DNA of 56,204 nucleotides from Lachnospiraceae bacterium (GTDB lineage: Bacteria > Bacillota > Clostridia > Lachnospirales > Lachnospiraceae), in the NCBI GenBank assembly GCA_017624835.1, contig JAGAMG010000027.1, positions 1 through 56,204 on the forward strand, read 5' to 3'. The notes under the pieces were generated by a model that searched no databases, was not told the origin of the DNA, and saw only the letters and a list, made by a program, of their open reading frames with translations. Of this stretch, positions 1 to 30,852 are shown piece by piece (positions within the stretch are counted from its first letter, which is position 1; each line of letters begins with the position of its first letter). Both the position numbers and the translations under genes were made by a program.

Positions 1-83
1 ACCGGCATAATCTGCTTGGAAATTGCCTTGGTTAAGGGATATAATCTGGTGCCGCTTCCTCCGGCTAATATAATACCTTTCAT
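1..83 (-). CDS. rfbA: Glucose-1-phosphate thymidylyltransferase, N-terminal 27 codons only
   Basis: The start of RfbA, reading off the left edge of the window: the ATG is at 83-81 and the nucleotide-binding [13 protein letters not shown] motif follows. It is the same DNA as 56064-56146, where the full gene is present, so it is not a second gene if the contig is circular. The start is supported by GAGG eight bases upstream. It lies 92 bases downstream of rfbB, as expected for an rfbB-rfbA pair. Confidence 0.85.
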
Positions 84-141
84 ATTTCGTACCTCTTTTT
101 TCTATCTTTTTTCGCTACTTTTAAACGCACCGAATGGGAAC
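1..141. repeat. Terminal direct repeat, left copy
   Basis: These 141 bases are identical to the last 141 bases of the window. They hold the first 27 codons of rfbA on the minus strand, its ribosome binding site and part of the rfbB-rfbA spacer. The repeat stops exactly at both window edges and cuts through a hairpin, so it has no biological boundary. This is the pattern of a circular contig written with a k-mer overlap; 141 is a k value used by some assemblers. Confidence 0.95.
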
Positions 142-160
142 GACGGTAATCGTTCCCATT
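133..160. other. Perfect hairpin between rfbB and rfbA
   Basis: An 11-bp perfect inverted repeat (AATGGGAACGA / TCGTTCCCATT) with a 6-base loop sits just after the rfbB stop codon. On the minus strand, the direction of transcription, no good T-run follows, so it may act as a weak terminator, an attenuator or an mRNA-stabilising element. The window's terminal repeat ends inside the left arm (base 141). Confidence 0.55.
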
Positions 161-1350: not shown

Positions 1351-3888
1351 TTAATATCCCAGATAACTAATATTCAAATCTACACTGCCACTGATACCGC
1401 TGATGCGCCCTGATTCGGTATACTGCCATAAATCATACTTTCCGGTATAGGTAGGGGTAACTGCATATTGAGCAAGCCATATTTTGTAGTTACTAAGTGC
1501 GGATGCATCGATTTTGCTGGTCAACCAAGTCTTATTGGCATAAACGCCTGCGGTATAGCCTGCATCCTGAATAGTAGCACAGAATGCCTTGCAGACTGCT
1601 GTTCTGGTGGCCTTATCAATACCGTCGGCACGACCGCCGCTGGCTTCCACATCCAGGAAAATGGGGTAGGATATTTTATATCCCTTGATTAATTCCAATA
1701 CCATGGATGCTTCCTCTACTGCTTCTACTTCGTCAACTGCCTGAGTAAAGAAATAAACACCAACCTTTAACCCTGCATCAATTGCTCCTTTAATATTGCT
1801 CTTATACTTGGGATCTTCAATTAATGCCCCGGCAGAGGAACCTCTGTAACCGCAGCGGATAATAACATAGGAAACACCGGAATTCTTTACAGCCTTCCAA
1901 TCAATGCTGCCATTCCATTTGGATACATCAATTCCCATGGTACCACCATCCGTCACTAGGGAACCATCACTGGCAAAATTATATTTTGCACCTTGAATAA
2001 CCTGCTCTCCGGTTACTTTTTTACCGGAGGCATCAAAGAAATATACCTTGCCGTCAATGGTCTGCCAACCGGTATACTTGGCATCCCCTCTCAGGAAAAA
2101 CTGCTCTGCGGTATAATAATCCGCATAAACCGCTTCTCTATATTTATTTCCATCCATAACATAGAGCTGCTTTCCATTTGCATCCAGCAATTTGCTGGTG
2201 GTATCGTCCTTAGGATGGGCTTTTACGGTAACTGCACAGGTTGCCACTGCTTCCACGCCGTTTTCCGTATATTTTACGGTAATGGTGGCACTACCGGTCT
2301 TCACACCTGTTATGGTAACTGCTTTACCGCTTGCAGTAGCAGTTGCAATCTCATTGTCGGAGGATTCCGCCGTTACTGCACTCTCTGTTGTTGCATTGGC
2401 AATCGTGGCATTCACAGTAATGGGTGTATTTAAATATACCGTTACTGCCGTTTTATCCAAGGTCATTGCCAAAGGCTGGGGAGCCACATTTCCACCGGAT
2501 ACGGTGACGGATGCAGTACGCATAAATTTAGCACTTGCAATCAAGGTAAGAGGATCCGGAACTATGCTTTTCGGAACCTCCACATAGGTATCCGCAACTA
2601 CCGTACTTTCCACCCAATTAATAGTATCCTGCAAAGTGGACTCCACAACGGTTTCCTTTTTCTTGGTATCCTCCTTGGAAGCATTTACCTGTGCCTCCGT
2701 CTTAATTTCATTCTTTACATCCACCTTCTCATAGGCAATATCCTTCTTTACTTCTATGGATTCCGTACCTGCGGGAAGAATATAATCCTTGTATTTGGAG
2801 TCGGTCAAAGCATTTACGGCAACCTTATATTTGCCGGGAGTAATTCCCTTTTTGTAAATAATACCGTCCATATCATCGTCTTCCCAGACAGCGGTTTTAC
2901 CATCCGGGTCTGTAACAGTTACTGCAAAGGGCACATTGGGAATCAGCTTGTCTGTTTCCTTATTGGTAAACTTGATTTTTAAATCCTTTTGGATGGAAAC
3001 CATATCCAATACCACGCCTGCCACATTGCTGTATTCGTTTTCCTCATATTCCGGCGTTTTTTCCGCTTCTTCCAATGCCACAAGCTCTGCCGCCGCAAGC
3101 TTCGCCTTCTGGGCATCCGCCACTGCCATTAACCCTTTTTCACCAATCATTTCAATATCTGCCAATTGGTTTCCCACACTTACAAATTCTGAGGTCTTTT
3201 TCTCTCCGGTTCGACTTATCAAAAATACGCCCCCGGTAATCATGGCAAGCACTAAAACCACAAGACCGGTAGCCGCTACGATACAATCCATCTTGTTCAT
3301 AGCCAATAGACCGCCAAGGAAGGATTGCTTCTGTCTTTTATCCGCAACCTTTCTTCTATTATTATAATTTTTATAATAATATTCCCGGTCGTCTTCCGCT
3401 TCTATCTCTTCCGCATAGTAAGCACTCTGCTCTGCATAGGCCTCTTCCGCCTCTTCTGCATAGTAAGCTTCCTGCTCCTCGTAGACCTCATCCGCCTCTT
3501 CTGCATAATAAGCCTCCTGCTCCTCGTAGACCTCATCCGCCTCTTCTGCATAATAAGCCTCCTGCTCTACATAGACCTCATCCGCCTCTTCTGCATAGTA
3601 AACATCCTGTTCTACATAGACCTCATCCGCCTCTTCCGCATAGTAAGCCTCCTGCTCAGCATATGCTTCTTCTGCTTCTTCCGCGTAATAAGCTTCCTCT
3701 TCTATATACTCCTCTTCTATATACTCCTCTTCTATATACTCCTCTTCTTCTGCATAATATGCATCCTCTGTTGCATATTCTTCCACAGCTTCCTCTTCCG
3801 TATCATCCCACAGGAAATCCTCTTCCAGATATTCCCTTTCGTCCCATTTTTTATAAGGTTTCTTGGTCTGATTAAAAAATTTCTTCAT
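1351..3888 (-). CDS. Membrane-anchored GH25 muramidase with acidic repeats, Big-type and wall-binding domains
   Basis: An 845-residue type II membrane protein predicted to cleave peptidoglycan. Residues 1-200 are very acidic and cytosolic, with YIEEE repeats (about 51-65) and six 15-residue EAYYAEEADEVYVEQ-like repeats (65-154). A basic stretch (RRKVADKRQK) and one membrane helix (about 202-225) follow, giving an N-in topology. Outside are an Ala/Lys-rich linker, a Big-type Ig-like domain (about 475-560), choline-binding-like repeats with GWQTIDGKVYFF (about 600-640), and a GH25 domain (651-845). The GH25 domain has GIDVSKWNG at its start and the FLDVE acidic pair (D746, E748). The start has RBS AAGGGAAG and a strong promoter. 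It may remodel the wall where the glycan is attached. The cytosolic repeats are unusual for a lysozyme. Confidence 0.9.
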   Translation of the reverse strand: MKKFFNQTKKPYKKWDEREYLEEDFLWDDTEEEAVEEYATEDAYYAEEEEYIEEEYIEEEYIEEEAYYAEEAEEAYAEQEAYYAEEADEVYVEQDVYYAEEADEVYVEQEAYYAEEADEVYEEQEAYYAEEADEVYEEQEAYYAEEAEEAYAEQSAYYAEEIEAEDDREYYYKNYNNRRKVADKRQKQSFLGGLLAMNKMDCIVAATGLVVLVLAMITGGVFLISRTGEKKTSEFVSVGNQLADIEMIGEKGLMAVADAQKAKLAAAELVALEEAEKTPEYEENEYSNVAGVVLDMVSIQKDLKIKFTNKETDKLIPNVPFAVTVTDPDGKTAVWEDDDMDGIIYKKGITPGKYKVAVNALTDSKYKDYILPAGTESIEVKKDIAYEKVDVKNEIKTEAQVNASKEDTKKKETVVESTLQDTINWVESTVVADTYVEVPKSIVPDPLTLIASAKFMRTASVTVSGGNVAPQPLAMTLDKTAVTVYLNTPITVNATIANATTESAVTAESSDNEIATATASGKAVTITGVKTGSATITVKYTENGVEAVATCAVTVKAHPKDDTTSKLLDANGKQLYVMDGNKYREAVYADYYTAEQFFLRGDAKYTGWQTIDGKVYFFDASGKKVTGEQVIQGAKYNFASDGSLVTDGGTMGIDVSKWNGSIDWKAVKNSGVSYVIIRCGYRGSSAGALIEDPKYKSNIKGAIDAGLKVGVYFFTQAVDEVEAVEEASMVLELIKGYKISYPIFLDVEASGGRADGIDKATRTAVCKAFCATIQDAGYTAGVYANKTWLTSKIDASALSNYKIWLAQYAVTPTYTGKYDLWQYTESGRISGISGSVDLNISYLGY
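3427..3696 (-). repeat. Six tandem 45-bp coding repeats
   Basis: Six in-frame units of 45 bp each encode 15-residue repeats related to EAYYAEEADEVYVEQ, followed by a partial seventh. Units 2-5 are most alike. They lie in the cytosolic part of the GH25 protein. The near identity of the units makes copy-number change by slippage likely. Confidence 0.9.
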
Positions 3889-10185: not shown

Positions 10186-11316
10186 CTATTTTTCATAAAA
10201 TGCCTTTACCTTACCGGAAATATAATCCACCTGCTCCAAGGTAAGACCATAGAACATGGGCAGACGAAGCAGACGTTCACTTTCTTGGGTGGTATAGCGG
10301 TCTTCCCCATGGAAACGTCCAAATTTCTTTCCTGCAGGAGCAGAATGAAGGGGAATATAATGGAATACCGCATGAACTCCATTTTCGCTGAGATAATCAA
10401 TTAATGCAGTTCTTTCCTCAATATCCCTTGCCTTAATATAAAACATATGGGCATTGTGCACACAGCCCTCCGGTACTACCGGCAAATCAATTTTCCCACT
10501 CTCAGCAAGAGAAGTAAGATTTTCATAATAGCGATTCCAGCAGGCAAGTCTTGCCTCATTGATTTCATCCGCAATTTCCAACTGGGCATAGAGATATGCT
10601 GCATTCATATCACTGGGAAGATAAGAAGAACCATAGTTCACCCAGGTATATTTATCAATCTGTCCCCGATAAAATTTACTGCGGTTGGTTCCCTTTTCCC
10701 GGATAATTTCAGCCTCTTCGATATCTTTTTCATGGGCAATTAACAGGGCACCACCCTCTCCCATGCTGTAATTTTTGGTTTCATGAAAACTAAAGCATCC
10801 GAAATCACCGATACTACCTAAAGCTTTCCCATTATAGGTGGACATAATACCCTGTGCTGCATCTTCAATCACTACCAGATTATGCCTTTTTGCAATATCC
10901 ATAATTTTATCCATCTCACAGGCAACTCCCGCATAGTGCACCGGTACAATGGCTCTGGTTTTGTCGGTAATTGCTGCTTCAATTAAATTTTCGTCTATAT
11001 TCATGGTATCCGGACGAATATCCACAAACACCGGAATAGCGCCTCTCAGTACAAAAGCATCCGCTGTGGATACAAAGGTGTAGGAGGGCATAATCACCTC
11101 ATCACCGGGCTGAATCTGAGCAAGTAATGCCGCCAGCTCCGTAGCATGGGTACAGGAGGTGGTAAGCAGGCACTTGGCGGTACCGGTACGCTCCTCAATC
11201 CATTCATTACATTTTTTGGTATAAGCACCATCACCGCATATTTTTTGATTTTTTACACATTCCTGAATATATTCTGCCGCTGTTTCCACATAGGGAGGTA
11301 CATTAAATGTTATCAT
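10186..11316 (-). CDS. wecE: dTDP-4-amino-4,6-dideoxygalactose transaminase
   Basis: PLP enzyme of the DegT/DnrJ/EryC1/StrS family that aminates dTDP-4-keto-6-deoxyglucose, the RfbB product, to dTDP-4-amino-4,6-dideoxygalactose (Fuc4N). The 376-residue protein follows the WecE/RffA family almost block for block: PPYVETAAEY at the N-terminus, IQPGDEVIMPSYTFVSTA, VPVHYAGVACEMD, FSFHETKNYSMGEGG with the PLP lysine, and VFHYIPLHSAPAG. In enterobacteria it serves enterobacterial common antigen; here it would supply an amino-sugar for the surface glycan. It needs only RfbA and RfbB upstream, both in this locus. Confidence 0.92.
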   Translation of the reverse strand: MITFNVPPYVETAAEYIQECVKNQKICGDGAYTKKCNEWIEERTGTAKCLLTTSCTHATELAALLAQIQPGDEVIMPSYTFVSTADAFVLRGAIPVFVDIRPDTMNIDENLIEAAITDKTRAIVPVHYAGVACEMDKIMDIAKRHNLVVIEDAAQGIMSTYNGKALGSIGDFGCFSFHETKNYSMGEGGALLIAHEKDIEEAEIIREKGTNRSKFYRGQIDKYTWVNYGSSYLPSDMNAAYLYAQLEIADEINEARLACWNRYYENLTSLAESGKIDLPVVPEGCVHNAHMFYIKARDIEERTALIDYLSENGVHAVFHYIPLHSAPAGKKFGRFHGEDRYTTQESERLLRLPMFYGLTLEQVDYISGKVKAFYEK

Positions 11317-11351
11317 ATTTCTAACCTTGCCTTTCTTCGTTCAGCCAACCA

Positions 11352-12311
11352 CTAAACACGTTTACGCCATGCACCAAGCACGGATTCCTGCACATTGTCA
11401 GTGATTTTACTGATAATATATTTGGGTCTTCCTTTTACTTCCTCATAAATTCGGGCAATATAATGTCCGATAACGCCCATACTCAGCATGATAAATCCAC
11501 CGATAATCAATATCAGCAAAATTACAGTGGTAAAGCCTTCTACAGCAGTACCGGTTAAATATTTCACCAAAGTCTGCACTGCAAGAATCACACTGAAAAA
11601 AATAGATACAATTCCCATAACTGTTACCATCTGTAGGGGCAGGGTACTAAAGGAGGTGGCATTTGAAATAGCATAGCGCATCAAACTCCAGAAAGACCAC
11701 TTGCTTTCTCCAAACTGACGCTCCTGCACCTCATATTCCACTGTTTCGGTACGGAAGCCCGCCCAAAAGGTTAATGCTCTGAAAAAGGTATTTCTCTCCG
11801 GGAGCTCCAAAAGCACCTGCACCACCTTGCGATCCATCAGCTTAAAATCAGAAGAGGCGTTCATATCCATCTTAATCAGCTTACTCATTATTTTATAAAA
11901 AAGTCCTGCTGACAGCTTATAGCCCAGACTTTCTTTTCCTCGATTGGACTTGATTCCCTCTACAATCTCTGCTCCCTTTTGCCACTTTTCCCACATCTGT
12001 GGAATTACCGTGGGGGGATGCTGCAAATCGCAGTCCATGACAATAACCGCATCCCCTGTGGTTAACTCAAGTCCTGCAAAAATTCCCGCTTCCTTACCAA
12101 AATTCCGTGAGAACTCTGCTCCCTTAATCCTTGAATCCTCCGCTGCAGCCTTCTGAATCTCCAAAAAGGTTCCATCCTTTGAGCCGTCACTGATAAAAAC
12201 CAGCTCATACTCAATACCTGCCTTCTCCAAGTGTTCCTTTAACACAGCCGCAGTATTGGCAATATTTTGCTCTTCATTATAAGCCGGCAATACAATAGAT
12301 AACAGTGCCAT
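11352..12311 (-). CDS. GtrB/DPM1-like polyprenyl-phosphate glycosyltransferase (GT2)
   Basis: 319 residues: a GT-A domain beginning LSIVLPAYNEEQNI, the donor-binding DCD of VIVMDCDLQHPP, and two C-terminal membrane helices (about 230-295). This is the GtrB/DPM1 plan: transfer of a sugar from a nucleotide donor to undecaprenyl phosphate on the cytosolic side. It sits between wecE and a GtrII-like membrane transferase, and a GtrB plus GtrII pair is a known surface-decoration arrangement. The donor sugar cannot be read from sequence. Confidence 0.85.
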   Translation of the reverse strand: MALLSIVLPAYNEEQNIANTAAVLKEHLEKAGIEYELVFISDGSKDGTFLEIQKAAAEDSRIKGAEFSRNFGKEAGIFAGLELTTGDAVIVMDCDLQHPPTVIPQMWEKWQKGAEIVEGIKSNRGKESLGYKLSAGLFYKIMSKLIKMDMNASSDFKLMDRKVVQVLLELPERNTFFRALTFWAGFRTETVEYEVQERQFGESKWSFWSLMRYAISNATSFSTLPLQMVTVMGIVSIFFSVILAVQTLVKYLTGTAVEGFTTVILLILIIGGFIMLSMGVIGHYIARIYEEVKGRPKYIISKITDNVQESVLGAWRKRV

Positions 12312-12333
12312 TTCTTTTCTCCTATGCTTTTCC

Positions 12334-13893
12334 TTAATCTCTTCCTACATTTTCTGTCTTTACATACATAATACCATCCACTACCTTCACGGAATTGGCT
12401 GCCGGGAAGGTATCCATGGCAATATATTCCTCATCAAAATAAATTTCTCCCACGGTTTCCACATCCAGGAAATTTAATGTTGCTCCCAGATAATTTTTCA
12501 TAAAAGCCTGATAATTATCTGCCGTATATAAAAGAGTATCCCCACTGAGTCCTATCATCCCCCCGGTTACCTTTTCGGTAATATCCGTGGTAGGAAACTC
12601 TGTATATCCTACAATCCCCACCATTGCTATGGGAATCCCATGATAATAGCCTTCCGCCTGCTCTATCCTGTCTAAAAGTCTGACACAGTAGGCATAGGTT
12701 TTTTCATATCTTTTTTGCAAATTGGAATAGCCGATATGATCTGTTACTCCATAATTAAACAATAATACAAAGGCTCCAAGAACCATCCCCCATTGGATGA
12801 TACAAATCCCCTTATCTTTCCATTCCGTACGATATCTGTTACAGAAAGCTATCATTAAAATTAACAAAAGTACCCACTGATAACGCATCAGCAGATGGTA
12901 GGTTACATTGGGGGAAACCAGCAGAATCAAATTGGCAGAAATAGGAAGTCCTATTGCCAACAGCCCTATTATAACGAAAAATCCAAGATTCTTCCACCAT
13001 TTTCTCCTATATTCCAGCAAAACCAAGGTAGCACCAAACAACACTACTAAAACCAATAATGCTACCACAGAAAAAGCATTATTAAAAAACACATTTCCCT
13101 TTAAGGTAAATACAAAGAAATCACGCCACATATTTAACAGCGTATTTACAATCCCGGCACCTTGGGCATTTTCACCGCCCATGCCGTTTATCCCCTGATA
13201 GGATGCTAATTCTTTCCCCTGAATTTTCAATAGCACCTGCAATATCACATAATAAAGCCCTGCACCGATTCCCCCCATATACAAATAGGGACAGGCAGAC
13301 AGAAGCTTCTCTTTTATGGTTTTCTTTTCTATTAGCAGAATTGCCACCTGATAAATACACAAAATCACAGCAAAGGGTAAGTATGCCTGATAAATTCCCA
13401 TACTGAATGCCAGACAAATTCCACCGGCAAGAAAACCCTTTTTGTATTTTGCAGTCAGGAGTACGGAAAGTACTGCCAAAAACAATGCCATCATATAACC
13501 ATCCATGGTAAATACATAAGCATAGGTGGAAGCCACCGCGGGAAATGCCACCAAAAGTCCACTCACCAATACAATCAGCATGCTGTCTTTTATTTCCAGC
13601 AATTCAACCAACGCTACCGCAGTCCCTGCCAAAAACAAAAGTGCCAAAATTCCAATCAGCCAGGGCAACGTAAAGTAGGAGGAAAATCCACAGGCAATGG
13701 TTAAAAACCATCTGCCGGAGGTAATCATATTCTGGTCAAAATACATACTGCTTAAGCCGTCATGATTGGGAATATCGGACACCATAATGGGCAAATGAAT
13801 CAACAGCCCTATCAAAAAGGCCGCACCAAACGCAATCTTCCATTCCTGCTTCGTATTCTGTTTGCATCTTATCCAAACTTCTTGGGGTGTCAT
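12334..13893 (-). CDS. GtrII-like membrane glucosyltransferase-domain protein
   Basis: 519-residue protein with about eleven membrane helices and a hydrophilic outer C-terminal domain (about 400-519). The start has IPNHDGLSSMYFDQNMITSGRW; the acidic residue, the conserved SGRW and the following helices resemble the Glucos_trans_II family, represented by phage GtrII. Such proteins transfer a sugar from undecaprenyl phosphate to an outer acceptor. It lies 22 bases upstream of the GtrB-like gene in transcription order, so the two probably work as a pair. Substrate unknown. Confidence 0.75.
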   Translation of the reverse strand: MTPQEVWIRCKQNTKQEWKIAFGAAFLIGLLIHLPIMVSDIPNHDGLSSMYFDQNMITSGRWFLTIACGFSSYFTLPWLIGILALLFLAGTAVALVELLEIKDSMLIVLVSGLLVAFPAVASTYAYVFTMDGYMMALFLAVLSVLLTAKYKKGFLAGGICLAFSMGIYQAYLPFAVILCIYQVAILLIEKKTIKEKLLSACPYLYMGGIGAGLYYVILQVLLKIQGKELASYQGINGMGGENAQGAGIVNTLLNMWRDFFVFTLKGNVFFNNAFSVVALLVLVVLFGATLVLLEYRRKWWKNLGFFVIIGLLAIGLPISANLILLVSPNVTYHLLMRYQWVLLLILMIAFCNRYRTEWKDKGICIIQWGMVLGAFVLLFNYGVTDHIGYSNLQKRYEKTYAYCVRLLDRIEQAEGYYHGIPIAMVGIVGYTEFPTTDITEKVTGGMIGLSGDTLLYTADNYQAFMKNYLGATLNFLDVETVGEIYFDEEYIAMDTFPAANSVKVVDGIMYVKTENVGRD

Positions 13894-13927
13894 CCTCTTC
13901 CTACCCTTCTGCTACTGCTTTTTATCC

Positions 13928-14764
13928 TTAATATAAAAAGAAATCTACAATTTCACCGGCAACTCTGTCCCTGCCCTTTTTATTGGGATGAAGACCATCC
14001 ACCGTATATTTCATCCACTTTTCCCATGTATCATGGGAATAAATGTGATAAGCATCCACAATCTCCAGCCCCAATTTTTCTGCCGTATATATGGTAGCAT
14101 TCACATAATCCTCAAGGGTATTGTCCCCCAATATATATTCCTCACAGGTAAGCCCCAATTCCGGGTACCATGTATAGGTGGGAGTTACCAATACAATCTT
14201 TAGTTCAGGATATGCACTTTGCAGCGTTCGAACTCCACTGCACAGAGCTCCCACATAGGTATTTTCATCATAGGGATTCTCATCCTCAGGGTATATCTTT
14301 TCTCCTGCATGATAATCATTAACCCCATAGCATACCAATAAAACTTCCACTTCTGAAAAATCAATCTGAGAAATCTCCCATAAAACATCGGGGAAGTGCT
14401 GGGTACCATTTTCCTCCAGATTTAACAACATCTGGGTTGTAAAGTCTCCCGATACAATGGACTTGGAAAGGCTGGCAAAAGATAACACATCCTTGGTATC
14501 ATCGGGATAAACGGATTCCTCCAGTCTGCCCATACAGGTTCCTCCCAGCGCCCCATTGTAAACGGTCATATCTAACGCTTTTCCCACCATATAAGGAATG
14601 GCAGTTTCGTCCCGAATTTGTCCCATAATGCTGTCTCCCAGCACTACCATTTCAAATTCCTTTTTTTCTTCTTCCTCTTTCTTAAAAAATGTAGTTCCTG
14701 CCAATACAGCAAAACACAGCACTGCCAGGATACCATATATTATTTTTTTCTTATTTCCATTCAT
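13928..14764 (-). CDS. SGNH/GDSL hydrolase-type protein, membrane anchored
   Basis: 278 residues with an N-terminal membrane helix (about 6-24) and an outer SGNH domain. All key blocks are present: VVLGDS (catalytic Ser), the GG of GALGG, YGVND, and DGLHPN with the Asp-His pair near the C-terminus. Such proteins de-esterify or O-acylate cell-surface glycans. I chose the ATG at 14764, with AAGGA just upstream, over the open frame to 14929, because the extension overlaps pseG. It is a paralogue of the proteins at 4104-5161 and 29403-30827; of the first two it is the one with an intact active site. Confidence 0.85.
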   Translation of the reverse strand: MNGNKKKIIYGILAVLCFAVLAGTTFFKKEEEEKKEFEMVVLGDSIMGQIRDETAIPYMVGKALDMTVYNGALGGTCMGRLEESVYPDDTKDVLSFASLSKSIVSGDFTTQMLLNLEENGTQHFPDVLWEISQIDFSEVEVLLVCYGVNDYHAGEKIYPEDENPYDENTYVGALCSGVRTLQSAYPELKIVLVTPTYTWYPELGLTCEEYILGDNTLEDYVNATIYTAEKLGLEIVDAYHIYSHDTWEKWMKYTVDGLHPNKKGRDRVAGEIVDFFLY

Positions 14765-14807
14765 GCTGTCCTTCACCGTCCTTGACTTTCCTTCACTGTC
14801 CTGTAAC

Positions 14808-15851
14808 TTATTTCCATCCTGCCATTTGACAAAGCTCTCCGGCAAGCCTTTTGGCACCATTTCCATCCACCAAAGCCCTCTGCCTGTTGCTATAGCTTCT
14901 TCTAAGCTGCTCATTTGCCGCAAGCTCACGCAAGGCTTCTGCTACATTTCCTGCAAAGGCTTCCTGCTCCTTTAAATAGTTACCGCCATAGGCAACTAAG
15001 CCCTTGCGATAAAAATTCTCCACAATCAATTCCTGATTATCCACAAAGGAAAAACAAAGTGTAGGTACTCCCGCCGCACTTAATTCATACATGGTGGAGC
15101 CCCCCGCTGTTATGGCTATATCACATTCCTTCATCAGTCCTGCCATATCCGTCACATTACAGTGCACCTTGATGTTGCCATTTTTTTCAGCCAGCTTTTC
15201 CAAATATGTCCGATGGGGATTGAAAACTCCACTGACTACATGGTAGCAAAGCTCCCTTGTGCCCTCTTTTGTCATTACCTCATCCAGAATTTTCCCTGCC
15301 AAATTATATTTATCACTGCCACCGGTGGTAATTAAGACATTTTTTGCCTCCGACCTTACCTGATACTCTACCTTCTGAAACTGTTTTCTTAAGGGTGCAA
15401 AGCCGGGGCCTAAAAAAAATGTTCCACATTCCCCGTCATATTCCATATCTTCCCCATAAATATTGTAATTTACAATTGCATCCACAGGGTAGGCGAAACG
15501 GGGAATATCATCCATATACACTACTTTGGCATATTCTCTCAAAGCTTTCAAATACTGCTCTGTTACAAAATAGCTGTCTATTAAAAGAAGTCCATGGGGA
15601 TGCTCTCCCAATAGCCTTTGCAGCTGTCGCTCTCCCATACCGGGCTGCAATTCTTCTTCCATCCTCTGATAGTCGGTACCTAATACGATATAATCATGCC
15701 CCCGCTTGGAAAGCAATTCCACGCCGCCTTCATCCGCTATCAGAAAGCAAACCTGCTCTCCCAATTCCTTACAGGCATCTGCAATGGAAAGACAGCGCAT
15801 CATATGCCCGGAGCCGATTTCCGAATTGGCATCTGCACGAATCCAAATCAT
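14808..15851 (-). CDS. pseG: UDP-2,4-diacetamido-trideoxy-altropyranose hydrolase
   Basis: Removes UDP from the PseH product to give the free 6-deoxy-altrose diacetamido sugar used by PseI to make pseudaminic acid. The 347-residue GT-B-like protein starts IRADANSEIGSGHMMRC, the PseG signature with the catalytic His of GSGHxMRC, and has TTGGSDK and AITAGGSTMYEL in the nucleotide-binding half. There is no fused acetyltransferase domain, unlike some PseG proteins. The stop lies close to the pseI stop side: only three bases separate it from 15855, implying coupling. Confidence 0.9.
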   Translation of the reverse strand: MIWIRADANSEIGSGHMMRCLSIADACKELGEQVCFLIADEGGVELLSKRGHDYIVLGTDYQRMEEELQPGMGERQLQRLLGEHPHGLLLIDSYFVTEQYLKALREYAKVVYMDDIPRFAYPVDAIVNYNIYGEDMEYDGECGTFFLGPGFAPLRKQFQKVEYQVRSEAKNVLITTGGSDKYNLAGKILDEVMTKEGTRELCYHVVSGVFNPHRTYLEKLAEKNGNIKVHCNVTDMAGLMKECDIAITAGGSTMYELSAAGVPTLCFSFVDNQELIVENFYRKGLVAYGGNYLKEQEAFAGNVAEALRELAANEQLRRSYSNRQRALVDGNGAKRLAGELCQMAGWK

Positions 15852-15854
15852 ACC

Positions 15855-17501
15855 CTACACTCCACTGTTTTTCTTTACCTCTGCAATAATATCACTCCAT
15901 GCAAAGGGGTGCTTATTTCGGATTTCCTCCAATTCCTTCATACGATGATAGGTACCCTCTCCCTGTTGCTTCTTAGGCGCAAGAGTTCCTGCTTTGATTG
16001 CTTCCCAATTCTCCTTAAAAAGCTCCTTCATTTCTGTAAGCAAAGCATCGTAGGTAGAAGCAAAGCTCTCCTTTGTCTCATCAAAGGACATTTCTCTCTG
16101 ACAAAGGATATCCCCGGTGTCCAGCTTTTCATCCATCAAGTGAATGGTTACCCCCTTGGGTGTATTATCCCAAAAGCTAAAGAAATTAGGACTGGAGCCT
16201 CTGTTATAGGGCAAATAGGAGGTATGCAGATTCAAAACTTTGCCGGGCATGGCGTCCAAAATCTCCTTACCAATCAAATGACGATAATTAAAGCTGATAA
16301 TCAGACTGGGCTCTAATTGCTGTATCATTTCCAAAGATATCTTATTTTCTATTTTAATAACCTTTTCTTCCTTGCTTTGGAGCCATTCATACAAATCCAG
16401 GGCATTGTCATTATTGGTTAAAAAGAGAACTGCTCCCTTTTCCATCAAATCAAAGGACATAGGCGTGCCTCTCTCAATATCCACCGCCGCTTTCATTCCC
16501 AAAATATCCGACAAGTATTTGGGCTTTACTCCATAACCGGGACGGATAATCCGGGTATTCTGCTCCGTAAAGGTTTCTCCCGCCTTCATATCCTCTACCA
16601 CAAAAACAGAACGTCGGAATACCATACTGCTTTCTTCCTGCTTGCTGACACCATAAACAGGCACTCCCTTGGCAGCCTCCACATTACGGATATCTGAAAC
16701 CATAGCCTTAAATTCCTCAGGAGGCATAGAAAAGGATGCATCGGGATTTTCAATTTCCCTGCTGATACAAAAATGCTTTTCAATAATGGATGCTCCCATA
16801 GCTACTGCCGTGGTAGCACTTAGAGAGCCCAGTGAATGGTCTGACAAGCCCACAGGAATTTCAAACCGCTTCATCATATCACAGATGGTCTGTAAATTCA
16901 TATCCGCCGGATTGGCAGGGTATGCGCTGGCGCACTTCATAATCGCCAATTGTCTGTTTCCTGTTTTGTAGATAGTCTCTATGGACTCCTTTATTTCCTC
17001 CAGACTTCCCATTCCCGTGGACATAATAATGGGCTTACCCTTTTGTGCCACATAAGTAAGAAGAGGTAAATCTATCATTTCAAAGGATGCAATCTTATAA
17101 AATTCCAAGCCTAATTCTTCCAAAAAATCCACCGAGGTTCTGTCAAAGGGTGTGGAAAGAAAATCAATCCCCACCTTGTCCGCCTCTTCCTTCAAAATCG
17201 GCTGCCAGTCCCAGGGGGTATATGCCTTGCCATACAGACCGTAAAGATTTTCTCCCTCCCAGGTACCGTTTTTTACCTGAAAATATTGATTATGGCAATC
17301 TATGGTCAGGGTATCCGGTGTATAGGTCTGAATCTTGATACAATCCGCACCACTTTCCTTTGCCGCATGAATAATCTCCTTGGCACGCTCCAGACTTCCT
17401 GCATGATTGCCGGACATTTCCGCAATAATATAGGCCGGTGCACCTGTACCTACAGGTCTGCCCTTGATATAAATTTGTGTATTACTCTTGTTTGTTTCCA
17501 T
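15855..17501 (-). CDS. pseI: Pseudaminic acid synthase fused to a formyltransferase domain
   Basis: 548 residues with two enzymes in one chain. Residues 1-350 are a NeuB-type synthase (TIM barrel with SDHSLGSL and IIEKHFC, then a SAF/antifreeze-like domain with IRPGYGVKPKY) that condenses phosphoenolpyruvate with the PseG product. PEFKAMVSDIR-like and FRRSVFVVEDM-like segments favour PseI over NeuB. Residues 357-548 are a formyl-transferase fold with the catalytic Asn-His of VLNLHTSYLP (N424, H426) and the Asp of KLDTGD (D461), the N-H-D set of enzymes that use N10-formyl-tetrahydrofolate. The fusion suggests an N-formylated pseudaminic acid or precursor. Usual PseI is about 340-350 residues. 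It lies between pseF and pseG in one operon. Confidence 0.9.
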   Translation of the reverse strand: METNKSNTQIYIKGRPVGTGAPAYIIAEMSGNHAGSLERAKEIIHAAKESGADCIKIQTYTPDTLTIDCHNQYFQVKNGTWEGENLYGLYGKAYTPWDWQPILKEEADKVGIDFLSTPFDRTSVDFLEELGLEFYKIASFEMIDLPLLTYVAQKGKPIIMSTGMGSLEEIKESIETIYKTGNRQLAIMKCASAYPANPADMNLQTICDMMKRFEIPVGLSDHSLGSLSATTAVAMGASIIEKHFCISREIENPDASFSMPPEEFKAMVSDIRNVEAAKGVPVYGVSKQEESSMVFRRSVFVVEDMKAGETFTEQNTRIIRPGYGVKPKYLSDILGMKAAVDIERGTPMSFDLMEKGAVLFLTNNDNALDLYEWLQSKEEKVIKIENKISLEMIQQLEPSLIISFNYRHLIGKEILDAMPGKVLNLHTSYLPYNRGSSPNFFSFWDNTPKGVTIHLMDEKLDTGDILCQREMSFDETKESFASTYDALLTEMKELFKENWEAIKAGTLAPKKQQGEGTYHRMKELEEIRNKHPFAWSDIIAEVKKNSGV

Positions 17502-17556
17502 ACACTGACCTTTCCTTTTTTATCTGCATTAACCTATCCACATTTCACAAACCTGT

Positions 17557-18252
17557 TTATTGGTTCCTGTTATTGATTAACTGATACTTCAATTCCGCCA
17601 GCTTCCAATCCACTTCATTATCAATATCCTGCACTTCCATCTCGGACAATTCCAAGGGAACGGTTTTGGTCATAAACAATCTGTTCTCTGCAAGGAAGCT
17701 CTCCGTACGCATACAGTAAAACTGCCCTGCATCATGGTAAAAGGGCTGTAAGTCCTGGGAACGGGAAAACATATATTCCGGCCATTTAAACTGCAGCATT
17801 CCCTCCTCCACAACGACACTTCTCTGGGGTGGGAATCCAAAACGTACTACGGGTATTACACTGTCCGCCTGATTCTCTTCCAAAAGCTCCACTGCCTTTT
17901 TTAAGGTCTCCCCGGTAAGAAAAGGGGCTGTGGGATAAATACAGCAGGCAATGTCAAAGCATTCCCCATGCTTGGCGTAGGTATCCAGCACTTCCTTTAC
18001 CACATCATTGGTTGCCGCATAATCATTGGCAGTAGCCTCACTACGCATAAAGGGAACCTCCGCCCCATAGCTTCTGGCAATCTCCGCTATCTCATTATCA
18101 TCCGTAGACACCATAACTGTATCAAAAATCCCTGCTGAAAGTGCTGCATTGATGGAATATGCCAGAATAGGTTTCCCACAAAACTCTCTGATATTTTTTC
18201 TTGGAATTCTCTTACTGCCACCCCGGGCTGTAATAATCGCTACCGCTCTCAT
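17557..18252 (-). CDS. pseF: CMP-pseudaminic acid synthetase (cytidylyltransferase)
   Basis: 231-residue nucleotidyltransferase that activates pseudaminic acid with CTP. It starts with the NeuA/PseF signature AIITARGGSKRIPRKN, followed by VSTDDNEIA and CIYPTAPFL. The segment FGFPPQRS and the ending QDIDNEVDW are typical of the PseF branch. It is first of the pseF-pseI-pseG group and 55 bases upstream of pseI. Confidence 0.92.
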   Translation of the reverse strand: MRAVAIITARGGSKRIPRKNIREFCGKPILAYSINAALSAGIFDTVMVSTDDNEIAEIARSYGAEVPFMRSEATANDYAATNDVVKEVLDTYAKHGECFDIACCIYPTAPFLTGETLKKAVELLEENQADSVIPVVRFGFPPQRSVVVEEGMLQFKWPEYMFSRSQDLQPFYHDAGQFYCMRTESFLAENRLFMTKTVPLELSEMEVQDIDNEVDWKLAELKYQLINNRNQ

Positions 18253-18276
18253 AATTACTATCTCCTGTCATTGGCT

Positions 18277-19293
18277 TTACTTACGCAGCTTCCATACCAA
18301 CTGCTTTAACCGATAATACCCAAAAAATGCTGCATCGGACTTGCCCTGCAAGGCTATGAATTTCTGTTCTTCCGATCCTGTTTCCTTCAAATAATAGGGA
18401 TTCTTTTCAAATTCCGGGGTTATCTTCACCGCTCCAAGGCGCAGCTTCTTTATAAAGCTTATCCGTGGCTTTTCCACTCCGGTCATATAAGAAAATAAAG
18501 TAATCACATAGTAGAGCTCCACAAAACGATACTCTATCTCCTTACGATAGTTCTCCAAAAATCCTCTCTTTTTGCATTCCTCATATAATAAACTTGCCGC
18601 TGTCATACGGTCATGGCACTTAGCCTCGGTAATATGATGGACTGTGGATGCCTGATGCTGATAATAAAAATATAAAGGCTCTTCCACCTTCTCAAAATGT
18701 TTAAAATACAGGCTCCACAAAGGTCCTGCACAATTATCTTCATAAAAGATACCTTCCGGGAAACATAAATGATTTTCCCGAATCACTTCATGCTTATAAA
18801 TCTTCACCACCATACTGCCGGGACGCATTACCAGCAGCTTGTGTTTTTCCAAATCCAACACTCCGGTCTGCTCAAGGGAATTAATGGGGACTACCTGTCC
18901 AACCTCCATGGTATGACTATTTACCAGGCTGTAATCACAGCCCACCATGTCCGCTCCGGTTTCCTGTGCTTTTGTCAAAAGCCTCTCATAATAATCCGGT
19001 GCTACCCAATCATCACTGTCAATAAAGCCAATCCATTCACCTTTGGCAACCTTTAAGCCCTCATTCTTGGCGCCCCCTTGGCGCTTGTTCACTTCATAAT
19101 GAATCACACGAAACCGCTCAGGGTATTTTTCCTCATACTTCTTTAGGATTTCCAAGGAGTTATCCGTGGATGCATCATCCACCGCGATGATTTCATAGTC
19201 GGAAATCGTCTGATTTATCAAACTATTTAAACAATATTCAAGTTTTCCATCCGCCGCCATGTTATACACCGGCACAATGATGCTTAGCCTCAT
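18277..19293 (-). CDS. Family 2 glycosyltransferase
   Basis: 338-residue cytosolic GT2 with a GT-A domain: LSIIVPVYNMAA, VDDASTDNS and the donor-binding DSDD of IGFIDSDDWV. The C-terminal third has no clear membrane helix. This is an ordinary inverting transferase that adds a sugar to a lipid-linked chain on the inner face. It is next to pseF and the ABC flippase, so it may add a sugar to the pseudaminic-acid-containing unit; donor unknown. Confidence 0.85.
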   Translation of the reverse strand: MRLSIIVPVYNMAADGKLEYCLNSLINQTISDYEIIAVDDASTDNSLEILKKYEEKYPERFRVIHYEVNKRQGGAKNEGLKVAKGEWIGFIDSDDWVAPDYYERLLTKAQETGADMVGCDYSLVNSHTMEVGQVVPINSLEQTGVLDLEKHKLLVMRPGSMVVKIYKHEVIRENHLCFPEGIFYEDNCAGPLWSLYFKHFEKVEEPLYFYYQHQASTVHHITEAKCHDRMTAASLLYEECKKRGFLENYRKEIEYRFVELYYVITLFSYMTGVEKPRISFIKKLRLGAVKITPEFEKNPYYLKETGSEEQKFIALQGKSDAAFFGYYRLKQLVWKLRK

Positions 19294-19304
19294 GAAATCT
19301 CCTT

Positions 19305-21053
19305 CTATCGGTTATCCCGTTCTATGGTAGCCTTGCCGTTCTCCACACGATAAACAATGTCACATTTCTCAATGGTCTGCAATCTGTGGGCAATAATAAT
19401 CAGGGTCTTTTTGCCGTGAAGTCTGTTGATGGACTCCATAATCGCAGCCTCCGTATCATTATCCAGCGCAGAGGTAGCTTCATCCAAAATCAATACCTCA
19501 GGATTATTGTACAAGGCTCTTGCAATACCGATACGCTGTCTCTGTCCACCGGATAAGCGGATACCACGCTCACCGATTCCCGTATCCAAGCCCTCGGGAA
19601 GGGTCTTTATAAATTCATCCAGCTGGGCTTCCTTCAAAACCGCCCAAAGTCTCTCCTCGTCAATTTTATCCTCCGGTACACCAAAGGCAACATTCTTGCG
19701 AATGGTATCATCCAGCATAAAAATCATTTGGGGAATATAACCGATATTTTTTAACCACTTACGGTAGTGCTGCTTTACCTCCACACCATCCGCATAGATG
19801 GTTCCGGTTTTTACCTCCAAAAGCCCCAGCAAAATATCCACAACCGTACTCTTTCCGGCACCGGAGGTTCCCACAATACCCACGGAGGCTCCCACAGGAA
19901 TCTCCAAATTTGCATGGTCAAAAATCAGCTTCTCCGTATTGGGATATGCATAGGTAATATCCTTCATTTCAATGGACTGCTCCACCGGAAGCTTTTCCTC
20001 TTCATCGGTGGCAAAGGACATATCCACCTTGTCCCCTGCAATCTCATCCTGGAGATTGTCACTGACTCCCATAAAGAAGGGTTCAAAATAAGCAATGGAA
20101 TTAATCTGATTATTAATACGATTGACACTGGGAAGCAATACAAATGCCGCAGCCGCCAGAGTACTAAACACCTCAATCATATTTTCCGAGGACTCTCCCA
20201 TCAGGGTCAGAAAAATCATATATCCCACCATGGTGCCCACACAAACCGTCTCAATCAACAGCTTGGGAATCTGATTGTACAGACTATAGCGTTGTACCGC
20301 ATTAACATAGCCCTTGCCGCACTTTTTATATTCCGAAACAAAATATTGCTCCTTGCCGGCAATCTTCACTTCCTTAACACCCTGTACGGTCTGAGAAATC
20401 CATTTAAACAACCCACTGTAATAATCCTGATTGTCCTTACCCGCCTTGTACATAATGGGCTTCAGCACTCTCTTAATCACATACATCAGGGTCAGCAATA
20501 CCACCGCCAGCAAAATGGTCATAACACCGCTTCTGCTTAAGCAATAACAAACAATAAAGACAGAAACCACCCCATCGGATAAAAGCTGCAATATCGCAAG
20601 AATCAAGGCATACATATTGTTTACATCGGAGGTAATACTTCTCTGTACCACCGCAGTATCCGCATTCAGATAAAATTCATAGCCTCTCCTCAGGTAATTG
20701 CGCATCATACGCTCGGAGGTACGGAACTGATTGGTATATACAAAAGAAAAGGTCAGCTTCTGCTGCACATACATAAAAATATTTTTTACAATAAAGGTCA
20801 CAATCAAAAGCGCCATAATCAGAACGGAAAAGCTTTGATAGCTCTCCATTCCCAATAACTCATAGGCAAACTGCGCCAATTCATTATTCATAATGGCATT
20901 GGGGTCAATCACAATGCTTACCACCTGCACCAATAGTCCCACTCCCGCCGTCTGCAGGAAGGCACCGATTACCATCAGAATAATCAGTCCCACCATGGTA
21001 CGCTTTTGCTTTTTATCCAATAATACGTTTAATTTTTTTAGTATTTGCAGCAT
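19305..21053 (-). CDS. ABC transporter with fused membrane and ATPase domains, PglK/MsbA-like
   Basis: 582 residues: six membrane helices in residues 1-310 and an ATPase domain with Walker A GTSGAGKST, signature LSGGQRQR, Walker B VLILDEATSALD and switch His in IIAHRL. Half-transporters of this kind include PglK, which flips lipid-linked oligosaccharides, and MsbA. Its place between a GT2 and a sialyltransferase-like gene suggests it flips the assembled lipid-linked glycan outward, the only candidate flippase I recognise in the window. General drug or lipid export is the alternative. Confidence 0.85.
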   Translation of the reverse strand: MLQILKKLNVLLDKKQKRTMVGLIILMVIGAFLQTAGVGLLVQVVSIVIDPNAIMNNELAQFAYELLGMESYQSFSVLIMALLIVTFIVKNIFMYVQQKLTFSFVYTNQFRTSERMMRNYLRRGYEFYLNADTAVVQRSITSDVNNMYALILAILQLLSDGVVSVFIVCYCLSRSGVMTILLAVVLLTLMYVIKRVLKPIMYKAGKDNQDYYSGLFKWISQTVQGVKEVKIAGKEQYFVSEYKKCGKGYVNAVQRYSLYNQIPKLLIETVCVGTMVGYMIFLTLMGESSENMIEVFSTLAAAAFVLLPSVNRINNQINSIAYFEPFFMGVSDNLQDEIAGDKVDMSFATDEEEKLPVEQSIEMKDITYAYPNTEKLIFDHANLEIPVGASVGIVGTSGAGKSTVVDILLGLLEVKTGTIYADGVEVKQHYRKWLKNIGYIPQMIFMLDDTIRKNVAFGVPEDKIDEERLWAVLKEAQLDEFIKTLPEGLDTGIGERGIRLSGGQRQRIGIARALYNNPEVLILDEATSALDNDTEAAIMESINRLHGKKTLIIIAHRLQTIEKCDIVYRVENGKATIERDNR

Positions 21054-21079
21054 TCTTATGCCTCTCCGTCTAATTCTTT

Positions 21080-22183
21080 TTATATCTGTTCATTCTGACG
21101 ATGCTTTAAGGGATCCTCATATTTATCCAAAAAGTCAGGACCCAGACGTATCTCTTCCTCCGCAAAGGAAAGCCCCATTACTTCCGTCAACACTCCCACT
21201 ACCTTTTTAAACTTCAATCCCGGAAAGAAATTCAACAGCTCCATGGGAACAGTAGCATCAAACTGAGGGTACTTTCCAAAAAGGATACGATAATCCAGCA
21301 CATCTCTGGGATGGGGCTTTAAGAAAATGGTCCCCTCCGGCTCATACATAGCGATAATATCCTTAAAAATCTGCTCCCGTACATCCAACTCACAAACAGG
21401 GTTCGTTAAAATCAAAATCTTATCCCCCATCTGATTACTCTCTGCTATCTGACGCTCCAAGCCTTCCTTGTCCCGGATAAATGCCTTTAAAATAATCTCC
21501 TTATCCTCCGCAGTCAGTCTGTCCACCAAAGGCTGTCTCGGTACCTCGATATACTGAGGACAGGGGTATTTAATGGCTGCAATATCATTCACTTCCATAT
21601 CCAGACAATATTTGCCGTAGCCATTCTGAATGAAAATCAAATTCAGTTTCCGGGATAAAAAGACCTTCAACCCAAAATGCCCTCTGTTATCATACCTTGC
21701 CGCATCAATATTTTTCAGACTGTTCAGTCCATCCTCCAAGGCATGATAATAAATCCTGTTCTGATTCAGATAATAGCCTATGGGATCGGAATCGCAATAT
21801 ACATAAATATCCTTATATTCCCGAAAATTCACCGGCACAAAGGGAGCCTCCAGCTTGGCATACCTTTTGGTAAACTGAATACGATACCAAAGATTCCCTA
21901 AAAAATTGCCGGTTCCCTTTCTCCATTTTGCAAGCTCTGGGAAATAATCGTCTCTTTTCTCGTCAAATTCTATTACCACATCAAAAAGACCGGTACTTTC
22001 CACCCGGTCTTTCAGCTTTTCAAAGTCGTTGGACATTTTCGACAGCACAAGTGTTGCGCCGGGCCTCCAATTCTCCAATCCGCAATTTTCCTGTGCACAA
22101 TAGTCCGCTCTCAGCTTCAATTCCTTTAAAAAGGTCACATACACATGATAATAGGTGTGACACACATAAATTCTATCTTTCAT
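21080..22183 (-). CDS. GT52-like (sialyltransferase-type) glycosyltransferase
   Basis: 367 residues without membrane helices. It starts IYVCHTYYHVYVTFLKEL, with a His-rich opening like that of GT52 and related sialyltransferases, and carries FLKPHPRDVLDY near residue 280, matching the KPHP motif of those nucleotide-sugar enzymes. In a locus that makes CMP-pseudaminic acid, the natural guess is the transferase for that sugar. The family call rests on overall form and the two motifs. It begins the run toward the ABC flippase, and its upstream gap (22184-22257) is AT-rich and could hold a promoter. Confidence 0.6.
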   Translation of the reverse strand: MKDRIYVCHTYYHVYVTFLKELKLRADYCAQENCGLENWRPGATLVLSKMSNDFEKLKDRVESTGLFDVVIEFDEKRDDYFPELAKWRKGTGNFLGNLWYRIQFTKRYAKLEAPFVPVNFREYKDIYVYCDSDPIGYYLNQNRIYYHALEDGLNSLKNIDAARYDNRGHFGLKVFLSRKLNLIFIQNGYGKYCLDMEVNDIAAIKYPCPQYIEVPRQPLVDRLTAEDKEIILKAFIRDKEGLERQIAESNQMGDKILILTNPVCELDVREQIFKDIIAMYEPEGTIFLKPHPRDVLDYRILFGKYPQFDATVPMELLNFFPGLKFKKVVGVLTEVMGLSFAEEEIRLGPDFLDKYEDPLKHRQNEQI

Positions 22184-22257
22184 AAGCCGATTTTAACACA
22201 TTTTTTGCCAGTAGTAAAATATACCACGAAATATTCAAAAAAATTTAAGAAAATCTT

Positions 22258-23991
22258 CTAAAAATGCACAATAAGATATTCTCCCGCATCCCCTATGGAG
22301 CCCTCCATAGGAAAAGAAGGCCAGGAAGCGGACAATTCCTCCGCCTCACTATAATCCCTATCCACCAGGGGGTACAGCTTGTAGCCGTGCATTTCAAAGA
22401 ATTTTACCAATTCCCCATCCGTTCCAAAGGCAGTTCTTCCCCATTCGATTACGGACAGGGTGGGCATTTGTGCCACAATGACTCCCTGGTCTCTGTAAAA
22501 CTTCTCCAGCAAATGCCCATCCAGCCAATCCGTAGCATTTACCATAAAGGTATATTCCTTCGTATCATACCCTACATAAGCAGGCGCAATAATACCGGGG
22601 GGGATTTCATAAATTCCGGTAAACACAATGGGTTTTGAGGTATCAAAGCCCTTTTCCAGCTCATACACCACCTGATTCATGGTTTCTTTGGCTGCCTCAT
22701 ACTTCAAATAATCCACATAAAACCATTTGTTCATATCCGCGCACTGATTCCAAAGTATGGAGGATAATAACAGTACTGCTATCCCTCTTACCGCCATTGC
22801 CGGCTTCGCCCCACTCCCTTGTGGGCTTTCTTTTTGCCCCGGCATTTTAGAAATCAGACTCTCCACTGCATACACAAACAACAGCGCACCCAGCCCACAA
22901 AGCACCGGCAAAAACTGCGCCGCCCGATAATAGGTAGCCTTTCCTTCAATCACAATCAGGGAAAAGGCAGCCACATAGCCTGCCACCGTCAACAAGAATA
23001 TCCACAAATCCCTGCGCCTGATACTCATCCACAAAGCCGTTAGCATAATCACAATCGTAGCCAGCACAAACACAAAAATTGGATAATAGGCACAGCCAAA
23101 CACTCCATACATTAAATAAATACGTTTCAATGCCATGGCAAAATTACTGAAAGCATCCGGCTCCAATATCCAGCCTATCAGCTCCGTAATGGAACGCTGT
23201 ACTGCTGCATCCTTTAAATACCCCAAATCAAACACCGCTGTTATCAAAGATATGGTAATACTACGCAGCACCATACTGCCAATGGCTACCACTCCTGCCA
23301 TAAGAATTGTAAAAATCACTGCCGGCTTTTCTCCACAGATACGCTTTAAAGCAAGCAAAAGACAGACTCCCATAAGCCATACCATCATAAAGGATTCATA
23401 ACAGCCCAGGGCAAGCCACAAACAAATAGCAGAACCGACAAGCAGGAACACGCGCCTCCCTATGGAAGCCGCTTCGCCCTTTTCCGACTGTTTTCTTGGC
23501 ACAAGCCAATTCTCCATCCCCTCCATAAACAGGCATAAAGAAACGCTGCTAAAGAAATACCCCATGGCAATTCCATTATGCAGATAGTAAGGATAAACCT
23601 CACTTATCAAAGGACAGGAAATAAAAATACAGGCAAAAAACAGATAACCATACCAAGGAACTCTGTCTTTCAAAATATGGTAAAGCAGGGTACTCCATAC
23701 CGTTACTGCCACCATAAAAATCAGCACACCTGCCAAATCTGTCAAATAAGGTGCAAATTCTCCGATGTTTATCACCTTGTTCAACAGATACAGCACCCAC
23801 CGCCCAACGATGGCCGCAAGCCCTTCTTCAAAATAATAAGCATAAGGAGTATCATCAATGCTGATGGCATAATTGGTTATCATAAACCCATAGCTACAGG
23901 CTGCGGTAAGAGCCAACGCAATTACATATATTTTCTTTTTCCAAAAATGTGTAAACATATCCACCCATTTTTTCATACACCAATGCTGCAC
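22258..23991 (-). CDS. GtrII-like membrane glucosyltransferase-domain protein
   Basis: 577 residues with about eleven membrane helices and an outer C-terminal domain. After the first helix it has ISIDDTPYAYYFEEGL and then IVGRWVLYLLNKV. The acidic pair and the GRW motif are shared with the protein at 12334-13893 and the Glucos_trans_II family. It would use a polyprenyl-phosphate sugar outside the membrane. A start at an inner ATG (23976) is possible. It is nine bases from the next gene, consistent with one transcript. Confidence 0.72.
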   Translation of the reverse strand: MQHWCMKKWVDMFTHFWKKKIYVIALALTAACSYGFMITNYAISIDDTPYAYYFEEGLAAIVGRWVLYLLNKVINIGEFAPYLTDLAGVLIFMVAVTVWSTLLYHILKDRVPWYGYLFFACIFISCPLISEVYPYYLHNGIAMGYFFSSVSLCLFMEGMENWLVPRKQSEKGEAASIGRRVFLLVGSAICLWLALGCYESFMMVWLMGVCLLLALKRICGEKPAVIFTILMAGVVAIGSMVLRSITISLITAVFDLGYLKDAAVQRSITELIGWILEPDAFSNFAMALKRIYLMYGVFGCAYYPIFVFVLATIVIMLTALWMSIRRRDLWIFLLTVAGYVAAFSLIVIEGKATYYRAAQFLPVLCGLGALLFVYAVESLISKMPGQKESPQGSGAKPAMAVRGIAVLLLSSILWNQCADMNKWFYVDYLKYEAAKETMNQVVYELEKGFDTSKPIVFTGIYEIPPGIIAPAYVGYDTKEYTFMVNATDWLDGHLLEKFYRDQGVIVAQMPTLSVIEWGRTAFGTDGELVKFFEMHGYKLYPLVDRDYSEAEELSASWPSFPMEGSIGDAGEYLIVHF

Positions 23992-23999
23992 TCCTGTTT

Positions 24000-25442: not shown

Positions 25443-25471
25443 AGTCCTTCCTCTCCAGGCAACTGCCTTTC

Positions 25472-26200: not shown

Positions 26201-26255
26201 CCGTACAAACCTTTTCTTTACTTCTAAATCTTTTCTTTCACACCCAAACCACTCA

Positions 26256-28160: not shown

Positions 28161-28168
28161 CTAATTCA

Positions 28169-29284: not shown

Positions 29285-29290
29285 CCTGCC

Positions 29291-30827: not shown

Positions 30828-30852
30828 CAAAAAACATTGCAATAAATAAGAT

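What the first reader, a model, noticed from the sequence alone, without database searches (positions are those of the whole stretch)
1..141. Identical 141-base ends: the window is a closed contig of 56,063 bp without replication genes
Bases 1-141 equal bases 56064-56204 exactly and the match ends at both window edges. This is the form in which k-mer assemblers write a circular contig (k = 141). Closing it puts rfbB upstream of rfbA with a 92-base gap, a sensible arrangement. Yet the content is a chromosome-like glycan locus with no rep, par, mob, integrase or phage gene. It could be a real circle (an excised or amplified capsule-type locus), a tandem duplication, or a graph loop from repeated rfbBA copies.
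Basis: partly seen in the sequence, partly recalled or inferred. Interest (0 to 1): 0.75.

Follow-up and report, generated by a model that had tools for sequence, protein, structure and literature searches.

The report
Assembly graph loop at duplicated rfbA
The identical ends of this 56-kb piece are most likely the overlap left by a short-read assembler where a duplicated sugar gene confuses it; the piece looks like an ordinary stretch of a gut bacterium's chromosome that builds surface sugars, not a separate DNA circle.

Summary
The closed-circle reading is not supported. The window is contig C21 of a 55-contig draft genome, and the same 141 bases also end another contig, C23. The 141-mer is thus a branch point of a k=141 assembly graph, not the seam of an isolated circle. 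Seven other groups of contig ends in this genome share 140-141 bases, five of them exactly 141. C23 ends in a second rfbA, 91.5% identical to the rfbA at the window's right end. In 17 of 20 fetched loci of related genomes, including a single-contig 4.08-Mb one, the genes of the window's left end (GH25, rfbB) lie next to the genes of C23's end (rfbA, rfbC, ABC exporter). So base 1 most likely continues into C23, and the window is a linear piece of a chromosomal glycan locus that looks circular because rfbA is duplicated. What follows the right end is not in the bin. Contigs alone cannot exclude a circle: a toy graph of circle plus empty site gives the same contigs as the linear model.

The parts
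1..141 (.). Shared 141-mer X, left copy: 5' end of rfbA (1-83, minus strand) plus 58 bases upstream of it
   Evidence: Identical to 56064-56204 and to C23:50122-50262
56064..56204 (.). Shared 141-mer X, right copy
136..157 (.). Hairpin GGGAACGA/TCGTTCCC between rfbB and rfbA, perhaps a terminator or attenuator; X ends inside its first arm
   Evidence: Only exact occurrence of the pattern in the held genome; RNA fold of 50-180 minus strand, z -5.05; similar sequence upstream of rfbA in many of the 20 relatives' copies printed. Function is inference.
   Evidence: Pfam GDP_Man_Dehyd 6.6e-93; near rfbA in 17 of 20 relatives' loci
1351..3888 (-). GH25 / choline-binding-repeat protein
   Evidence: Pfam Glyco_hydro_25 4.3e-35; same place in relatives
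10186..41862 (.). Surface-glycan synthesis genes (aminotransferases, glycosyltransferases, NeuB-family protein, cytidylyltransferase, ABC transporter and others), mostly collinear with relatives' chromosomes
45783..51308 (.). Mannose/fucose-type nucleotide-sugar genes (phosphomannose isomerase, epimerase, GDP-mannose dehydratase family, nucleotidyltransferase with mannose-6-P isomerase domain) and one AraC-type regulator (49014-49892, plus strand)
   Evidence: Pfam
51224..51318 (-). Relict of the 3' part of an rfbA gene at the start of the guanylyltransferase-type gene
   Evidence: 80-83% identity over 96-98 columns to bases 669-766 of the rfbA copies
51319..55276 (-). AT-rich island (29.3% GC against 43-46% in five other stretches measured) with a RelA/SpoT-domain protein and four ORFs without a Pfam hit
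   Evidence: GC; Pfam RelA_SpoT 5.8e-16
55277..56146 (-). rfbA copy 1 (glucose-1-phosphate thymidylyltransferase; name recalled)
   Evidence: Pfam NTP_transferase 8.5e-78; 91.5% DNA identity over 928 bases to rfbA copy 2 at the end of C23

Best explanation
The window is a linear contig from the chromosomal surface-glycan locus of a Lachnospiraceae bacterium, assembled with k = 141, which fits MEGAHIT. The chromosome carries two rfbA genes in the same orientation, one at each end of this 56-kb stretch. Their first 83 coding bases and the 58 bases before them are identical, so the assembler has a single 141-mer for both and stops there. Each contig touching that node keeps the 141-mer, so this contig starts and ends with it and C23 ends with it (shown). 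The true neighbour of base 1 is C23 (inferred from gene order in relatives). The true neighbour of base 56204 is a sequence missing from the 84.8%-complete bin (inferred).
For: Three contig ends share the 141-mer: C21 left, C21 right, C23 right. The sequence shared by the C21 and C23 right ends stops at exactly 141. All 110 contig ends were compared: 13 ends fall in six groups sharing exactly 141 bases, ours included, and 5 more in two groups sharing 140. Such maxK end overlaps are what MEGAHIT leaves at repeats in most simulated cases (COBRA paper PMC10914622, passages seen). Relatives: 17 of 20 loci have GH25-rfbB-rfbA followed by rfbC and the ABC exporter genes that lie on C23; two have this order without rfbB; one is a second rfbA copy with a 40-residue rfbB piece. 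An unannotated 8.1-kb human-gut record filed as a phage, MT836978.1, has the same order across the join. In the single-contig genome G006, 32 of 46 window proteins match within about 60 kb beside the C23 homologues. A toy k=141 graph of a linear C23-C21-Z sequence returns C21 and the C23 tail letter for letter. G030 has two rfbB copies, 95.7% identical over 1,103 bases and 51 kb apart on one 187-kb contig, so rfb duplication at both sides of this locus occurs elsewhere.
Against: No contig leading out of the right end was found, so the exit is inferred. If the exit also leaves at X, the repeat must be exactly 141 bases long; otherwise the exit branch was lost. An excised circle plus an empty chromosomal site gives the same contigs. 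No reads or coverage were available. The C21-right order (rfbA beside the RelA-type island) was seen in none of the 20 loci or the 80. 18 of those 80 rfbB loci have room for rfbA downstream but none within 1 kb.
Confidence: 0.87

Rival explanations
1. A real extrachromosomal circle of 56,063 bp, excised by homologous recombination between the two rfbA direct repeats, coexists with a chromosomal empty site.
For: The repeats have the same orientation and are 91.5% identical over 928 bases with 141 identical. The toy graph of circle plus empty site gives the same contigs as the linear model.
Against: No replication or mobility family among 46 Pfam-scanned ORFs. No megablast match of the window to plasmid records (which together cover it). 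The locus is chromosomal in the single-contig genome G006 and linear in eight other extended relatives. Without replication genes such a circle could only be transient (inference).
Confidence: 0.05
2. A tandem duplication or amplification of the 56-kb stretch in the chromosome, formed by unequal crossing-over between the rfbA copies.
For: Direct repeats are in place; C21's right and left ends can be joined by overlap.
Against: Nothing requires it; none of the 20 loci or the nine extended loci shows it. No coverage data.
Confidence: 0.05
3. A strain mixture: the C21 and C23 ends come from different strains and the loop is a chimera of strains.
For: Metagenome bins can mix strains (general knowledge). 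The two rfbA copies are closer to each other (91.5%) than to the best match in any of the 60 relatives searched (82%).
Against: The two copies have different downstream genes (island against GH25-like, rfbC and ABC exporter genes), so they are not simple alleles at one site. Listed contamination is 0.53%.
Confidence: 0.03

Closest known systems
maxK end overlaps left by de Bruijn assemblers at repeats (COBRA paper, PMC10914622, passages seen)
   Same: Contig ends share exactly k bases with more than one other contig end; joins must be checked by coverage and read pairs
   Different: Here one repeat copy lies at each end of the same contig, so it looks self-circular
Chromosomal dTDP-sugar / ABC-exported surface-glycan locus of Lachnospiraceae
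   Same: GH25-rfbB-rfbA-(GH25-like)-rfbC-ABC exporter order as in relatives
   Different: A second rfbA and an AT-rich island with a RelA/SpoT-domain protein at the far side

Membership tests
Circular replicon (plasmid, phage or excised element) written as a contig with k-mer overlap | Terminal overlap equal to k | tested here: met
   141 bases; 141-base sharing elsewhere in the assembly
Circular replicon (plasmid, phage or excised element) written as a contig with k-mer overlap | The overlap k-mer joins only the contig's own two ends | tested here: not met
   C23's right end carries the same 141-mer
Circular replicon (plasmid, phage or excised element) written as a contig with k-mer overlap | Replication, partition, mobilisation or integration genes | tested here: not met
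   46 ORFs against Pfam, none of these families at E up to 0.001
Circular replicon (plasmid, phage or excised element) written as a contig with k-mer overlap | Reads spanning the join and none leaving | not testable with these tools
   No reads held
Chromosomal contig broken at a repeat of at least k bases | Second genomic copy of the terminal sequence at another contig end | tested here: met
   rfbA copy 2 at the end of C23
Chromosomal contig broken at a repeat of at least k bases | Conserved gene order continues from the contig end into the other contig | tested here: met
   17 of 20 relatives' loci; nine extended loci; MT836978.1
Chromosomal contig broken at a repeat of at least k bases | An exit contig for the second repeat copy | tested here: inconclusive
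   None among the contig ends of this bin; the smallest contig is 2,510 bases, so shorter contigs are not in the bin

The most novel reading that the evidence does not exclude
The two rfbA genes act as direct repeats by which the cell loops out or amplifies the whole 56-kb glycan cassette, the 141 identical bases being the trace of recent exchange between them, and part of the population carried the circle when sampled.
Probability: 0.06. Interest if true: 0.5.

Novelty: not a real feature. Interest (0 to 1): 0.12.

Why it matters
It shows how a draft chromosome piece can pass for a circular element: equal ends of length k are not proof of a circle unless the k-mer is absent from every other contig end and reads span the join. 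The biology left over is modest: rfb genes are occasionally duplicated at both sides of this glycan locus and seem to exchange sequence, which could help reshuffle it (inference).

Tried and rejected
A 46-base piece of X was sought in viral contigs and genome contigs: no exact match in either (both may leave out the window's own genome). The far flank of the locus was sought in the own genome with a 9.6-kb piece of G006: nothing, and by the tool's own note an empty answer shows nothing. Megablast of the window against plasmids in three pieces: no match. Against phages in three pieces: two matches, both to unannotated records filed as 'UNVERIFIED: Bacteriophage sp.' from human feces. MT837289.1 matches window 46804-47741 at 73.9%. 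MT836978.1 matches 1-1260 at 81.6%. Neither has equal ends (lengths 20-999 tested), and both carry glycan-locus genes in relatives' order. I read them as stray bacterial chromosome fragments, not as phages carrying the locus.

Functional constraint as the reason for the 141 identical bases was considered and not favoured: in 20 relatives' rfbA copies (19 genomes) the first 83 coding bases are 75-90% identical to this gene and the rest 75-82%, so the start is only slightly better kept. A second, identical rfbB beyond the right end was considered: only one rfbB was found in this genome, and a longer repeat should have broken C21 elsewhere.

Paper searches: searches gave the two papers cited, read as passages only. 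A search on rml genes as capsule recombination sites was seen as a listing and not used.

Full report
What was claimed. The identity is exact, and 141 is the full overlap.

The window in its genome. It is contig C21 of a 55-contig draft genome of 2.93 Mb, 84.8% complete. G016, of the same genus, has a contig of 100,790 bases with rfbB at 45933-47012. The named record DXGH01000072.1, Candidatus Acetatifactor stercoripullorum, has the same length and gives the same rfbB position. So the genus is most likely Acetatifactor in the sense of GTDB (inference).

A third copy of the 141-mer. The same 141 bases are the last 141 of contig C23, which is 50,262 bases long. Reading back from the right ends, C21 and C23 agree for exactly 141 bases and then differ. 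I compared all 110 contig ends (2 kb each). Exact 141-base sharing occurs in six groups: C1/C50, C6/C33, C6/C16, C36/C49, C53/C55 and ours. Two further groups share 140 bases (C10/C18/C39 and C29/C54). I left out of this count a 108-base overlap of C22 and C24, and contig C4, which is a palindrome. C21 is the only other contig whose own two ends can be joined. This is the signature of a k = 141 assembly graph. Several records in the genome collection bear names starting with k141_, which I recall as MEGAHIT's style. The COBRA paper (PMC10914622, passages seen) reports that, in most simulated cases, MEGAHIT and metaSPAdes leave maxK end overlaps when repeats break contigs, and that such joins need checking by coverage and read pairs. 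Chen et al. 2020 (PMC7111523, passages seen) note that some assemblers keep nonunique sequence at scaffold ends and that small linking scaffolds are easily missed by binning. The smallest contig here is 2,510 bases.

What the repeat is. C21's right end and C23's right end both carry an rfbA gene on the minus strand, 91.5% identical over 928 bases. All 79 differences lie outside the first 141 bases of that stretch, counted in gene direction. With 79 differences scattered at random over 928 bases, 2 of 20,000 shuffles gave a run of 141 or more. In 20 relatives' copies the first 83 coding bases are 75-90% identical to this gene, against 75-82% for the rest. So the identical tract is better read as recent exchange between the copies than as constraint (inference).

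Where base 1 leads. Of 61 genomes searched with the rfbA stretch, 45 had a match, the own genome included. I fetched 20 loci from 19 of the relatives, chosen by hand for good matches. In 17 of the 20, GH25 and rfbB (C21's left end) lie next to rfbA (gaps up to about 1 kb), then rfbC and the ABC exporter genes (C23's end). Two have this order without rfbB. One is a second rfbA copy preceded by a 40-residue piece of rfbB. The genes that tell C23 from C21's own right end are those beyond rfbA. On C23 these are a GH25 protein, a dTDP-4-dehydrorhamnose 3,5-epimerase (rfbC) and an ABC ATPase with a Wzt C-terminal domain, by Pfam. The ORF between them had no Pfam hit; I call it the exporter's membrane part (wzm) from recall. 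The best 80 named loci around rfbB, a capped list, give: 56 with rfbA within 1 kb downstream, 18 with room but without it, and 6 without room. 54 have rfbC downstream, and none has any of the five island genes of C21's right end. The record MT836978.1 has the same GH25-rfbB-rfbA-GH25-rfbC-exporter order.

The rest of the window in relatives. In the single-contig genome G006, 32 of 46 window proteins match between 10.6 and 70.0 kb of the stretch, beside the C23 homologues. Some matches are weak (about 30%) and a few are out of order. Eight other extended relatives continue linearly in the same way to varying degrees; G004 has about 30 kb of other sequence in between and G015 shares fewer genes.

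Where base 56204 leads. This is unknown. No other contig end in the bin starts with the 141-mer. The right end holds rfbA copy 1, then a 4-kb AT-rich island (29.3% GC against 43-46% in the five other stretches measured), then a relict of an rfbA 3' part. In G030, the best match to the rfbA stretch among the relatives, a second rfbB and an rfbC-like gene lie at the far side of the same locus. The two rfbB copies are 51 kb apart and 95.7% identical over 1,103 bases, on one 187-kb contig. In the genus, more than one strong rfbB match is found in 3 of 138 genomes (G030, G073, G088; some copies partial). A second rfbA of 85% or more is found in 2 of 138 (this genome and G003); two others have second copies at 64-71%.

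What contigs can and cannot decide. A toy k = 141 graph of a linear C23-C21-Z sequence, Z being random, gives C21 and the C23 tail back letter for letter. A circle plus an empty site gives the same contigs. A circle alone was also run, but the script starts at branch nodes and printed nothing for it, so that case tells nothing. The choice between linear and circular therefore rests on gene order in relatives, on the lack of replication genes, and on the lack of plasmid relatives. All favour a linear chromosome piece.

Verdict. The terminal identity is real as sequence but is an assembly feature. The window is an ordinary chromosomal glycan-locus contig broken at a duplicated rfbA.

Noticed in passing
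51319-55276: AT-rich island (29.3% GC) with a RelA/SpoT-domain protein and four ORFs without Pfam family. Three of its genes (54811, 54286, 53436) have homologues at 66-73% identity side by side in genome G133, with no rfbA match in the 20 kb fetched there. Weak PADLOC matches (PDC-S33, 5.7e-06) and phrog_2211 (3.3e-32, unknown function) hint at a defence- or phage-related cluster.
   Followed up: partly
51224-51318: Relict of the 3' part of an rfbA gene at the start of the guanylyltransferase-type gene, in the same orientation as the intact copy 4 kb away.
   Followed up: partly
136-157: Perfect hairpin between rfbB and rfbA, found once in the held genome, with similar sequence upstream of rfbA in many of the relatives' copies; perhaps a conserved attenuator.
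   Followed up: partly
3406-3717: Tandem repeats inside the gene of the GH25 protein: exact 25-mers spaced 45 bases apart, and copies 81% alike at 90 bases.
   Followed up: no
L062 and L119 (contig C4 of the same genome): Contig C4 (2,510 bases) is its own reverse complement over its whole length, probably an assembly artefact.
   Followed up: partly
L292, L293 (MT836978.1, MT837289.1): Two unannotated human-gut records filed as 'UNVERIFIED: Bacteriophage sp.' carry pieces of this bacterial glycan locus and look like misfiled chromosome fragments.
   Followed up: partly
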